From Halomarina oriensis (GTDB lineage: Archaea > Halobacteriota > Halobacteria > Halobacteriales > Haloarculaceae), in NCBI RefSeq assembly GCF_009791395.1, contig NZ_WSZK01000023.1, forward strand, positions 86,665-150,664: a stretch of DNA of 64,000 nt, written 5' to 3'. Shown here one piece after another: positions 31,010 to 41,578 of this stretch. The position numbers were made by a program, and so were the translations under genes. The notes beneath the pieces were generated by a model. It worked only from the letters and a program-made list of their open reading frames with translations, was not told the DNA's origin and searched no databases. How positions within the stretch are numbered: the first letter of the stretch is position 1; each line of letters starts with the position of its first letter.

Positions 31010-31255
31010 ATGGCTCGCGGTATCATCGGCACCGTCCAACTCGTCGTCACCCTCGTGTTCGCCATCCCCGTCGGACTGTTCGGCGTCACGAAACTCGTCG
31101 CCGGCGACGTACTGTTCGGTGGCGTCGTCCTCGCCGTCGCCGTCGGGATGGTGCTCGTCGAGGAGTACCTGACGACACCACAGGACGTGCCGAGCATGGC
31201 CGCCGAGAAGGTCGTCGGGTCCGTCGTCGAGGACCCGGACGCCGACGAGGAGTAG
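31010..31255 (+). CDS. Small haloarchaeal two-helix membrane protein
   Basis: 81 residues: MARGIIGTVQLVVTLVFAIP through about residue 48 form two transmembrane helices, then a cytosolic tail LVEEYLTTPQDVPSMAAEKVVGSVVEDPDADEE. The EEYL-TTP-D-P tail motif is reminiscent of a small conserved haloarchaeal family of unknown function, but I cannot name it with certainty. The last codons and stop (GAGGAGTAG) form the left edge of a hairpin repeat shared with the region after the RLI gene. Confidence 0.65.
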   Translation: MARGIIGTVQLVVTLVFAIPVGLFGVTKLVAGDVLFGGVVLAVAVGMVLVEEYLTTPQDVPSMAAEKVVGSVVEDPDADEE

Positions 31256-31292
31256 CGCGGTTCGGACCGAGCGAAGCGAGGGAGAACCGCGC
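31247..31292 (+). repeat. Hairpin repeat at a gene end (GAGGAGTAG + stem-loop)
   Basis: After GAGGAGTAG (31247-31255) a perfect 9-bp stem GCGCGGTTC (31255-31263) pairs with GAACCGCGC (31284-31292). The loop contains the conserved 18-bp core CGGACCGAGCGAAGCGAG, starting at 31263. The same core and arrangement, with different but still complementary arms, occur at 41306-41350. Confidence 0.7.
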
Positions 31293-31332
31293 ACGGAACG
31301 GCGGTCGTGCCCGCTCCGAGCGCTCCGAGCGC

Positions 31333-31765
31333 TCACTCCGTGTCGTGGATACGGACCGTCATGACGGGGACGTCGGCCGCCCGGACCACTTTCTCCGTGA
31401 CGCTCCCGAGCAGGTAGCGTTCGAGACCCCCCCCGACCGTGGGTCGCCATGACGACGAGGTCGACGTCCTGGCGGTCGACGTAGTCGAGAATGGTCCGCC
31501 ACGGCGTCCCCTGCTCGACGTCGGTGACGGCGGTGACCCCGCGCTCGTCGGCCCGTTCGGCGATGGCCTCGACCGCCCCCTTGCCGACCTGCGTGAGCGC
31601 GTCGACGACGTCCGTCCCGACGAGCGTGACGCTGTCGCGTTGGGTGTCCGCGACGAACAGGACGTGCAGCGTCGCGTCGTGGGCCACCGCAAGGCCGAGT
31701 GCGTACTCCAGCGCCTCCCCCTCACCGTCACTGCCGGCCGTCGGAAACAGGATGCGGTCGAACAT
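31333..31765 (-). pseudogene. UspA-type universal stress protein, frameshifted at a G8 run
   Basis: From the ATG at 31765 the frame reads MFDRILFPTAGSDGEGEALE… to DLVVMATHGRGG, the UspA nucleotide-binding core, then turns to nonsense. The +1 frame continues LERYLLGSVTEKVVRAADVP VMTVRIHDTE to the stop at 31333, exactly the missing end. The break is at eight consecutive Gs (minus strand; eight Cs on plus, about 31427-31434). With seven Gs the protein would be a normal ~143-residue UspA. This may be a slippage site, a true mutation, or a sequencing error. Confidence 0.8.
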
Positions 31766-31838
31766 GACGTCGACGTGTACCACACGACAGCTGATAAACA
31801 GAACGGCCGTCGGGCGGTTCGACGGGGGGACGGTCGCG

Positions 31839-39103: not shown

Positions 39104-39403
39104 ATGGCTACCGACACGGTCGAACGCTTCGATGCCCACGTGAGGGGCATCACCGTGACGGCGCTGTCCGCCCTGCTGGGCATCGCCGCCGCCTTCGGGT
39201 CGTACGTCACGACGTCCGGCCCGACCGAGACGGCGGTCGTCTTCGCCCTCGTCGCGGCTATCGCCGTCCAGTTCCCGGTGCTCCAGTTCACCGGCATCAA
39301 AACGGACTTCTCCGCGAAGGACTACCTCTACGTCGCGTTCATGACGTTCGCGCTCTGGTTCGTCACGCTGACCATCCTCTTCACCGCGGGCGTCACCCTG
39401 TAA
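39104..39403 (+). CDS. EMC6-like membrane protein
   Basis: 99 residues with three helices: HVRGITVTALSALLGIAAAF, VVFALVAAIAVQFPVLQFTG and YLYVAFMTFALWFVTLTILF. The short KTDFSAKDYLYV turn and its place directly before RLI are typical of the archaeal EMC6-like family, proposed relatives of the ER membrane-protein insertase subunit EMC6. The stop and the next start overlap by one base (TAATG), so translation with the RLI gene is coupled. Confidence 0.8.
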   Translation: MATDTVERFDAHVRGITVTALSALLGIAAAFGSYVTTSGPTETAVVFALVAAIAVQFPVLQFTGIKTDFSAKDYLYVAFMTFALWFVTLTILFTAGVTL

Positions 39404-41247
39404 TGGCCGACGACAGCATCGCGGTCGTCGACCTCGACAGGTGCCAGCCCGACCGCTGTAACTACGAGTGCGCCAACTACTGCCCGCCCAACCGGACGGG
39501 CAAGGAGTGCATCGTCACGCGCGAGGAGCGCCACGGCGACGACACTTACGAGGGCGACCCCGACCAGGTGTCTATCTCCGAGGACATCTGTCTGGGCGAG
39601 TCCTGTGGTATCTGCGTCGTCAAGTGCCCGTTCGACGCGCTAGAGATCATCAACCTCCCGCAGGAACTCGACGAGGAACCGGTCCACCGCTACGGCGAGA
39701 ACGCCTTCGCGCTCTACGGCCTCCCGGCCCCACAGGACGGGCAGGTGACGGGCATCCTCGGACCGAACGGTATCGGGAAGACCACCGCCGTCCGCATCCT
39801 CGCCGACGAGATAACGCCCAATCTCGGCGACCCCAGCGTCGACCCCGACTGGGACGCGGTCATCGACGAGTACCGGGGGACAGAGCTCCAGAACTACCTC
39901 GAGGGCGTGCAGGCCGACGACGTCACCGTCGCGCGCAAACCACAGTACGTCGACAAGATTCCGGATCAGTTCGACGGCAACACCCGCCAACTGCTCGAAT
40001 CGGTCGACGAACGCGGCGTGATGGCGGACCTGGTCGAGCGGCTCTCCATCGGCCCGGTCGTCGACCAGGCCATCGACACGCTCTCCGGGGGAGAGCTCCA
40101 GCGAGTCGCGCTCGCGGCCACGCTCGCGCGTGACGCCGACTTCTACTTCCTCGACGAGATCACCCCCTATCTGGACATCGGCCAGCGCGTCACCGCCGCG
40201 CGTCTCATCCGAGAACTCGCCGAGGACGGCGACCGGTCGATGCTCGTCGTCGAACACGACTTGGCGGTGCTCGACCTGCTGGCCGACTCGCTCAACGTCG
40301 CCTACGGTGAACCCGGCGCGTTCGGTGTCATCACGCCACCGAAGTCGACGCGCCAGGGCATCAACCAGTACCTCTCGGGCTACCTCGAGAACGAGAACAT
40401 GCGCATCCGCCCGGAGGCCATCGAGTTCGAGCGCCACGCGCCACGCTCGTCGTACCAAGGCGAAGCGCTGGCCACCTATCCGGACCTCACGATGTCCTAC
40501 GGTGAAGACGAGTTCACCCTCGACGTCGAGGCCGGCGAGATCCGGGAGAACGAGGTGCTCGGCGTCGTCGGCCCGAACGGGATCGGGAAGTCGACGTTCG
40601 CCAAACTGCTGGCGGGCCGTCTCGAACCGACCGAGGGCGAACTGGACACCCGACTGGACATCTCGTACAAGCCGCAGTACGTCGACATCGACCAGCCGAT
40701 GCGTGTCGACGCGTTCCTCGCGTCCATCACCGACCAGTTCGGCTCCTCGTACTGGGAGACCGAAATCGCCAACCCGCTCCAGTTGGGCCAGATCATGGAG
40801 CAGAACCTCACCGACCTCTCCGGCGGGGAGCGCCAGCGGGTGGCCATCGCGGCGTGTCTCTCGAAGGACGCCGACCTCTACCTGCTCGACGAACCCTCGG
40901 CCCACCTCGACGTCGAACAGCGGGTGCTCGCCACCCGCGCCATCCGTCGGTACACCGAGAACCACGACGCGACGGCGATGGTCATCGACCACGACATCTA
41001 CATGATCGACCTGCTGTCGGACCGCCTGATGGTGTTCGACGGCGAACCCGCCGTCCGCGGCGAGACCTCCCCTCCAGTGGGGATGCGCGAGGGGATGAAC
41101 CGGTTCCTCTCCAATCTGGACATCACGTTCCGCCGGGACCAGCGCACCAGTCGCCCGCGTATCAACAAGCCGGGCAGCCAGCTCGACCGCGAACAGAAGA
41201 ACGCCGGCGAGTACTACTACGCGCCGGCGGACGACGACGAGGAGTAG
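39403..41247 (+). CDS. Ribosome recycling / initiation ATPase RLI (ABCE1)
   Basis: 614 residues. Splits ribosomes after termination. Two N-terminal Fe-S clusters are shown by CQPDRCNYECANYCP… and LGESCGICVVKCPFDALEI. There are two ABC modules: Walker A GPNGIGKTTAV and GPNGIGKSTFA, signatures LSGGELQRV and LSGGERQRV, Walker B DADFYFLDEITPY and DADLYLLDEPSAH. The hinge and length match ABCE1. The 5' end overlaps the EMC6-like stop. The end, GAGGAGTAG, is the first unit of a tandem hairpin-repeat array. Confidence 0.96.
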   Translation: MADDSIAVVDLDRCQPDRCNYECANYCPPNRTGKECIVTREERHGDDTYEGDPDQVSISEDICLGESCGICVVKCPFDALEIINLPQELDEEPVHRYGENAFALYGLPAPQDGQVTGILGPNGIGKTTAVRILADEITPNLGDPSVDPDWDAVIDEYRGTELQNYLEGVQADDVTVARKPQYVDKIPDQFDGNTRQLLESVDERGVMADLVERLSIGPVVDQAIDTLSGGELQRVALAATLARDADFYFLDEITPYLDIGQRVTAARLIRELAEDGDRSMLVVEHDLAVLDLLADSLNVAYGEPGAFGVITPPKSTRQGINQYLSGYLENENMRIRPEAIEFERHAPRSSYQGEALATYPDLTMSYGEDEFTLDVEAGEIRENEVLGVVGPNGIGKSTFAKLLAGRLEPTEGELDTRLDISYKPQYVDIDQPMRVDAFLASITDQFGSSYWETEIANPLQLGQIMEQNLTDLSGGERQRVAIAACLSKDADLYLLDEPSAHLDVEQRVLATRAIRRYTENHDATAMVIDHDIYMIDLLSDRLMVFDGEPAVRGETSPPVGMREGMNRFLSNLDITFRRDQRTSRPRINKPGSQLDREQKNAGEYYYAPADDDEE

Positions 41248-41578
41248 GGAGACGCTCGCGGTGCGAGCGTCTCAAAAAACCGAACGGGGAGCGGTAGCGA
41301 CCCGTGAGGAGTAGGGAGATTCGGACCGAGCGAAGCGAGTGAGAATCTCCGACCCCCGAGCGGTGACCAGCGGGAACCGCGAGGAGTAGCGTGGTTCGGA
41401 GTTCCCGCGAGTGAGACGAACGGGAGCACGGAAGACGAGCAGAGCGAGTCTTCCGGAGCGCGAGACCCACGGGATTCCGAACGGCGAACAGTGTGAGCCG
41501 TGAGGAGTAGGGAGATTCGGACCGAGCGAAGCGAGTGAGAGTCCCCGAGAGCCGTCTCGGGGCATCCACCGCACGCTT
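41239..41578 (+). repeat. Tandem array of four GAGGAGTAG + hairpin units
   Basis: GAGGAGTAG occurs at 41239-41247 (the true RLI end), 41306-41314, 41381-41389 and 41502-41510. Each is followed by a potential stem-loop: GAGACGCTCG/CGAGCGTCTC; GGAGATT/AATCTCC around CGGACCGAGCGAAGCGAG; a nested structure GTTCGGA/TCCGAAC enclosing CGGAAGAC/GTCTTCCG; and a decayed copy of unit 2. The 61 bp at 41397-41457 match 15905-15965. The array separates RLI from the PHP gene and contains no gene. Confidence 0.75.
41249..41273 (+). other. 10-bp perfect stem-loop directly after the RLI stop
   Basis: GAGACGCTCG (41249-41258), loop CGGTG, CGAGCGTCTC (41264-41273), followed by six As. On the RLI mRNA the hairpin is followed by A rather than U, so it is not a classic intrinsic terminator. 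It could protect the 3' end or mark the unit boundary of the array. Confidence 0.6.

What the first reader, a model, noticed from the sequence alone, without database searches (positions are those of the whole stretch)
31247..31292. Compensatory stem changes in the GAGGAGTAG hairpin family
At 31255-31292 the stem is GCGCGGTTC/GAACCGCGC; at 41315-41350 it is GGAGATT/AATCTCC. The loop core CGGACCGAGCGAAGCGAG is identical in both, and again at 41518-41535. Different stems that remain complementary around a constant loop indicate that the structure, not only the sequence, is kept.
Basis: seen in the sequence. Interest (0 to 1): 0.6.

Follow-up and report, generated by a model that had tools for sequence, protein, structure and literature searches.

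The report
Haloarchaeal hairpin repeats with G·A caps

Summary
The hairpin at 31255-31292 and its variant at 41315-41350 have different, perfectly complementary stems around the same core. The third copy (41511-41546) keeps a weaker stem. The 'constant loop' is not a loop. It folds as tandem G·A pairs, two Watson-Crick pairs and a GNA turn (GA-XY-GNA-Y'X'-GA). In 1.66 Mb of haloarchaeal DNA taken without regard to the motif this architecture is far above chance between genes and near chance inside genes. XY/Y'X' and the outer stem covary (score 0.430 against 0.179±0.016 shuffled). Controls with AG for GA, or other turns, lose the signal. In the genome the hairpins form modular repeats (A and B hairpins plus GAGGAGTAG), sometimes tandem (77 bp x 5.5 in a relative). 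The hairpin at 31255 is absent from the orthologous site in two sibling species; the array at 41248-41546 is shuffled or absent in siblings. Related copies sit behind tRNA genes. So this is a dispersed, structured, transposase-less repeat, not a conserved regulator of one gene. The turns used match stable DNA turns better than RNA ones, but copies behind tRNA genes favour the transcribed strand, so RNA or DNA is unresolved. I found no description in the literature held here.

The parts
31010..31255 (+). Upstream gene, 81 aa, DUF7533; its stop TAG (31253-31255) abuts the hairpin
   Evidence: Pfam PF24377 E 4e-31; ORF ends at 31255
31247..31255 (+). GAGGAGTAG: end of the gene, same 9-mer as the unit tails of the 41-kb array
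31255..31292 (+). Hairpin A, reported copy: stem GCGCGGTTC/GAACCGCGC; 31264-31283 forms the cap GGA-CC-GA-GC-GAA-GC-GA-GG-GA
   Evidence: MFE structure ((((((((...((..((...))..))..)))))))) with RNA (z -3.33) and DNA (z -2.01) parameters
31269..31279 (+). Cap core GA-GC-GAA-GC-GA (tandem G.A pairs, 2 Watson-Crick pairs, GNA turn)
41239..41247 (+). GAGGAGTAG, end of the RLI/ABCE1-like gene (39403-41247), start of the array
41248..41273 (+). Hairpin 0, perfect 11-bp palindromic stem without G.A cap; also in sibling G007
41284..41305 (+). Hairpin B1: ACGGG-GAGCGGTAGCGA-CCCGT (tetraloop GGTA)
41306..41314 (+). GAGGAGTAG unit tail 1
41315..41350 (+). Hairpin A1: GGAGATTC/GAATCTCC with the cap; C.T mismatch where copy 1 has C-G
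41360..41380 (+). Hairpin B2: GCGGT-GACCAGCGGGA-ACCGC
41381..41389 (+). GAGGAGTAG unit tail 2
41390..41431 (+). Diverged A-type module CGTGGTTCGGAG..CACGG
   Evidence: sequence; overlapping alternative hairpin 41370-41408
41429..41455 (+). Hairpin C: CGGAAGAC-GAGCAGAGCGA-GTCTTCCG; relatives on Haloferax, Haladaptatus and Salinigranum plasmids
41481..41501 (+). Hairpin B3: ACGGC-GAACAGTGTGA-GCCGT
41502..41510 (+). GAGGAGTAG unit tail 3
41511..41546 (+). Hairpin A3, degraded duplicate of A1 (3' arm GAGTCCCC)

Best explanation
The feature is one copy of a dispersed, modular, transposase-less hairpin repeat of haloarchaea. Each module is a short variable Watson-Crick stem closed by a constant-architecture cap: tandem G.A pairs (inferred sheared), two Watson-Crick pairs and a GNA turn, often with a second tandem G.A step further out. 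Shown by sequence statistics: the cap grammar, covariation in stem and cap, intergenic location, tandem unit arrays, and presence/absence and shuffling between sibling species. Inferred: the purine-rich strand folds as a single strand, and copies spread as small insertions or duplications in tolerated spacer (mainly gene and tRNA 3' sides), where the folded strand, more likely DNA than RNA, is what is copied or protected. The cap would be the stable nucleus from which the variable stem is kept matched.
For: Cap grammar in DNA sampled without regard to the motif: XY/Y'X' both complementary in 17 of 76 (own) and 32 of 100 (relatives) intergenic GA-NN-GNA-NN-GA sites, against control ratios of .02-.21 and about .1 in coding. 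GNA is the only triloop and GA/GA the only flank to stand out. Second shell complementary in 112/185 when the core pairs, 23/225 when it does not; third shell GA/GA 39/112. Strict caps: 58 outside called genes (about 0.3 Mb) against 3 inside (1.37 Mb). Outer-stem covariation 0.430 against 0.179+/-0.016. Turns: triloop GNA odds ratio 51, tetraloops GNYA 14 and GNAB 8, but RNA-type GNRA 1.4 and UNCG 0/51. Tandem array 77 bp x 5.5 in another family. Hairpin absent from the orthologous site in G006 and G007; RLI array shuffled in G007 and G001, absent in G006, G004, G002. No significant strand preference against protein genes, 33 sense and 23 anti (p 0.23).
Against: No insertion junction, target duplication or mobilising enzyme was identified. 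Behind tRNA genes the caps lie mostly on the transcribed strand (25 sense, 9 anti in loci not chosen by orientation; 4 and 0 in the unselected sample), and in the unselected sample caps are denser between convergent genes (0.51 per kb) than divergent ones (0.14 per kb), which also fits an RNA 3'-end role. All 5 caps within 25 nt of a stop codon are sense. GNRA should be as good a DNA turn as GNYA, yet is not enriched. Sheared pairing is inferred, not measured.
Confidence: 0.6

Rival explanations
1. RNA-level element: a 3'-UTR or trailer hairpin that blocks exonucleases or pauses/terminates transcription, with the cap as a protein-binding site (for example an L7Ae-type protein, which recognises tandem G.A pairs).
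For: Sits directly after a TAG stop at 31255 and in several relatives; denser between convergent genes; sense bias behind tRNA genes; strong RNA fold, z -3.33; hairpins upstream of some 3' ends in Haloferax, one of which terminated 59% (PMC7237163).
Against: No significant sense bias next to protein genes (33/23); no enrichment of RNA-type GNRA or UNCG turns; no T-run follows the reported hairpin, whereas T-stretches dominate intergenic termini in Haloferax; not conserved at orthologous sites; no Rfam match.
Confidence: 0.25
2. By-product of template-switch replication: a stable snap-back DNA turn lets the nascent strand copy its own arm, so matched variable stems arise and are repaired without selection on structure.
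For: Constant cap with variable, perfectly matched stem; DNA-type turns; inverted plus direct copies of the tRNA T arm around caps behind tRNA genes; placement in tolerated spacer.
Against: Near-identical A hairpins at unrelated loci in one genome look like dispersal rather than local templating; no ancestral/derived arm pair was caught in the act.
Confidence: 0.2
3. REP/RAYT-like or IS200/IS605-derived palindromes moved by a Y1 (HUH) transposase.
For: Small palindromes, ssDNA logic; haloarchaeal PATEs carry IS605-like palindromes (PMC3119063).
Against: No Y1 transposase in this genome or in G001, G007, G039, G057, all with the motif; stems are not conserved in sequence.
Confidence: 0.05
4. 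Low-complexity GAGCGA repeats that pair by chance.
For: The core is a purine-rich mirror repeat.
Against: Swapped flanks, AG controls, other turns, coding sequence and slid partners all lose the signal.
Confidence: 0.02

Closest known systems
GNA/GNNA DNA mini-hairpins, d(GCGAAGC) class (Hirao, Yoshizawa; as cited in PMC4686876) and d(cGNNAg)/d(cGNABg) loops (Nakano 2002, title cited in PMC2984261)
   Same: GC-GNA-GC with any N; C-G closing pair; loop classes match
   Different: Those are synthetic oligos; here the turn sits on tandem G.A pairs within dispersed genomic hairpins
Transposase-free mobile repeats of Haloquadratum: SMRs and PATEs (PMC3119063)
   Same: Short, haloarchaeal, no transposase gene, presence/absence polymorphism, palindromes
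   Different: No terminal inverted repeats or IS605-like ends shown here; family defined by fold grammar rather than sequence; tandem A/B modules
Bacterial REP/BIME elements
   Same: Dispersed intergenic hairpins, sometimes tandem
   Different: REP stems are conserved in sequence (memory) and depend on RAYT; here stems vary and no Y1 protein is present
rtT-type tRNA 3'-tail repeats of E. coli (memory only)
   Same: Copies of a tRNA 3' tail repeated downstream of the tRNA gene
   Different: Here units carry an inverted T arm and a G.A-capped hairpin, behind many different tRNAs
Kink-turn / K-loop (memory)
   Same: Tandem G.A pairs next to a stem
   Different: Only a 1-nt bulge (GGA/GA), not the 3-nt bulge of a k-turn; GNA cap

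Membership tests
REP/RAYT elements | Y1 transposase (RAYT) in the genome | tested here: not met
   PF01797: 0 matches in G000
REP/RAYT elements | Conserved stem sequence | tested here: not met
   All 8 outer pairs vary on both sides
SMR / PATE (Haloquadratum) | Terminal inverted repeats or IS605-like near-terminal palindromes | tested here: inconclusive
   Unit ends not defined; no Y1 transposase in the genome; definitions
SMR / PATE (Haloquadratum) | Presence/absence at orthologous sites | tested here: met
   Absent at the orthologous site in G006 and G007
Archaeal intrinsic terminator | T-run at the end | tested here: not met
   Sequence after 31292 is ACGGAACGGCGG
Stable RNA hairpin caps | GNRA or UNCG turn preferred | tested here: not met
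   GNRA 3/51 (odds ratio 1.4), UNCG 0/51
Stable DNA hairpin turns d(cGNAg), d(cGNNAg), d(cGNABg) | Sequence class of the turn | tested here: met
   GNA 135/214, GNYA 19/51, GNAB 13/51; the GNRA part of GNNA is not enriched
Stable DNA hairpin turns d(cGNAg), d(cGNNAg), d(cGNABg) | Measured stability as ssDNA | not testable with these tools
   needs melting or NMR
Kink-turn | 3-nt bulge plus tandem sheared G.A | tested here: not met
   GGA/GA internal loop in copy 1
Known Rfam family | Score above gathering cut-off | tested here: not met
   0 matches in the window

The most novel reading that the evidence does not exclude
The cap is a self-priming DNA snap-back module. On the nascent or displaced strand the GA-XY-GNA-Y'X'-GA fold primes copying of the flanking arm, creating and repairing matched stems and multiplying units in intergenic DNA, a structure-propagated repeat that needs no transposase, used across haloarchaea and possibly independently in some bacteria.
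Probability: 0.15. Interest if true: 0.85.

Novelty: new variant of a known kind. Interest (0 to 1): 0.62.

Why it matters
A simple non-canonical folding grammar (tandem G·A pairs plus a GNA turn) explains a recurrent class of short hairpin repeats between haloarchaeal genes and is hard to see in searches by sequence alone. It gives a direct genomic case in which unusual DNA turns known from oligonucleotide chemistry appear to be retained in vivo, and a tractable system for asking whether matched hairpin arms are kept by selection or by template-switch copying.

Tried and rejected
(1) tRNA introns: hits next to GGTTCRAATC first looked like introns; ARAGORN shows them ~100 nt behind complete tRNA genes, as second copies of the tRNA tail. 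(2) Gene-specific regulator: rejected by absence at orthologous sites. (3) Y1/RAYT-driven repeat: no Y1 transposase in the genome. (4) Intrinsic terminator: no T-run. (5) G·T against A·C as an RNA/DNA discriminator: 20 against 19 for the inner pair (baseline 28 against 52), not decisive, since G·T is also the better DNA mismatch. (6) Homology of all copies: the core recurs in unrelated bacteria, so some convergence is likely; flank pairing is weaker there (z 4.5) and in viral contigs (z 5.4). (7) Literature: searches for the motif sequences, haloarchaeal intergenic palindromes and tRNA-tail repeats found no description; the library lacks most subscription journals. (8) The whole genome was not available as a file; stretches were used instead.

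Full report
Check of the observation. The 18-mer CGGACCGAGCGAAGCGAG occurs at exactly the three reported places, and nowhere else in the 4.07-Mb genome. Copies 1 and 2 have perfect, different stems; copy 3 has a weaker stem (one A·C and one G·T). Among the 26 genome copies of the 12-mer GAGCGAAGCGAG, left and right flanks pair much better with each other than with flanks of other copies (mean longest perfect stem 5.62 against 3.92±0.21; at least 7 bp in 31% against 2.7%). The same holds in relatives and in haloarchaeal contigs (z 7.0 and 7.5).

What the 'loop' is. The core GAGCGAAGCGAG is a mirror repeat, which cannot pair with itself in register, but shifted by one it reads GA-GC-GAA-GC-GA: two G·A mismatches, two Watson-Crick pairs and a three-base GNA turn. 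The minimum-energy fold of 31256-31293 gives exactly this arrangement with both RNA and DNA parameters. In relatives the most variable core position is N of GNA. The architecture was tested without using the sequence GC. In 364 kb of this genome and 500 kb of relatives, sampled without regard to the motif, intergenic GA-NN-GNA-NN-GA sites have complementary NN/NN in 17/76 and 32/100 cases; controls with AG..AG, GA..AG, AG..GA or other turns give ratios of .02-.21 and coding DNA about .1. GNA is the single triloop, and GA/GA the single flank, that stands out. In the enlarged sample (1.66 Mb) the core is complementary at 89 intergenic sites and not at 170. Over all haloarchaeal loci held at that point, seeded ones included, the next two pairs outside the G·A step are complementary in 112/185 sites when the core pairs and 23/225 when it does not, with pair types GC/GC 40, AC/GT 33, CC/GG 19, GT/AC 9; a second GA/GA step follows in 39/112. 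On 85 unselected sites, chosen by cap only, all 8 outer pairs show two-sided changes; covariation score 0.430 against 0.179±0.016 shuffled and at most 0.211 slid. These sites are mostly different loci, so the counts describe a shared architecture rather than one ancestral alignment.

DNA or RNA. With at least 4 outer pairs, triloops are GNA in 135/214, and tetraloops are GNYA 19/51 and GNAB 13/51, whereas GNRA (3/51) and UNCG (0/51) are at background. GNA and GNNA turns are those of extraordinarily stable DNA mini-hairpins (PMC4686876), and d(cGNNAg) and d(cGNABg) were selected in vitro as stable DNA tetraloops (title of Nakano 2002, cited in PMC2984261). This favours DNA, with the reservation that GNRA should then also be enriched. 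Strict caps next to protein genes show no significant strand preference (33 sense, 23 anti, p 0.23) but are denser between convergent than divergent genes (0.51 against 0.14 per kb). Behind tRNA genes they are mostly sense (25/9 in loci not chosen by orientation), and all 5 within 25 nt of a stop are sense, which favours RNA. I leave this open, leaning to DNA.

What the element is. In the window the array 41248-41546 is built of modules: hairpin 0; B1 ACGGG-GAGCGGTAGCGA-CCCGT; GAGGAGTAG; A1; B2 GCGGT-GACCAGCGGGA-ACCGC; GAGGAGTAG; a diverged A; C; B3 ACGGC-GAACAGTGTGA-GCCGT; GAGGAGTAG; A3. Across B1-B3 both stem and cap pairs change in step while GA..GA stays. In a haloarchaeon of another family the unit A+B is a tandem array, 77 bp x 5.5 copies, 98% matches. 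A-type hairpins were found in 32 of 295 genomes of the order, 12 of 88 genera. In the genus, the hairpin behind the DUF7533 gene is absent in G006 and G007, where the gene is followed by unrelated sequence; G007 carries the identical inner 30-mer of hairpin A behind RLI instead, and the RLI arrays of G007 and G001 are differently ordered sets of the same modules, with none in G006, G004 and G002. Behind tRNA genes, units hold a second copy of the tRNA 3' tail, an inverted T arm and a capped hairpin, in 129 of 196 genomes, often tandem. This is the behaviour of a small dispersed repeat. No Y1 transposase is present in this genome. In the phylum, the extended pattern was found in 5 of 11 haloarchaea and in none of 69 others; exact copies of the core exist in scattered bacteria, such as a cyanobacterial MAG with several copies, Coriobacteriia and Omnitrophota, so convergence or transfer is possible.

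Conclusion. The finding is real and more interesting than stated, but for a different reason: the constant part is a folded cap, and the covariation reflects a dispersed structured repeat. Nearest known kinds are haloarchaeal SMR/PATE repeats (PMC3119063) and bacterial REP elements; it fails the tested defining features of REP (transposase, conserved stem). I file it as a new variant of small palindromic repeats, with mechanism unproven.

Noticed in passing
31333-31785 (-): Universal-stress-protein-like gene is split between two reading frames near a run of eight C (about 31426-31433): a frameshift or a homopolymer assembly error.
   Followed up: no
L278-L337 (for example L296, L304, L325): Behind many haloarchaeal tRNA genes lie one or more units with a second copy of the tRNA 3' tail, an inverted T arm and a G.A-capped hairpin, sometimes in tandem (about 105 bp per unit).
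   Followed up: partly
L082, L087, L093, L120, L151, L153: A cyanobacterial MAG (RA.bin105) carries a multi-copy repeat TTTGCC-GAACGAGCGAAGCGAGTGA-GGCAAA with conserved flanks, the same cap in a bacterium.
   Followed up: no
L109, L116, L158: Omnitrophota genomes share ATTCTTC-gagcgaacGAGCGAAGCGAGtgagtcga-GAAGAAT-type hairpins.
   Followed up: no
L084, L104, L124, L135, L144: A recurrent hairpin CCCCT(CCCT)..cap..AGGGAGGGG across several haloarchaeal genera; possibly the 3' end of an IS1341/TnpB element (not tested).
   Followed up: no
41397-41464; L448 801-864: The region of hairpin C has 83-89% identical copies on plasmids of Haloferax, Haladaptatus and Salinigranum; the Haloferax copy lies upstream of an aRF-1 gene.
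   Followed up: partly
L060 17953-17979; L075 17416-17444: Another repeated hairpin, GTTAGAC-agagagcgtga-GTCTAAC, at two loci of this genome.
   Followed up: no
41272-41574 (-); L354 1477-1944 (-): The repeats create long antisense phantom ORFs (LTRFARSE.. / SLRSFRTA..), likely to be annotated as hypothetical proteins.
   Followed up: no
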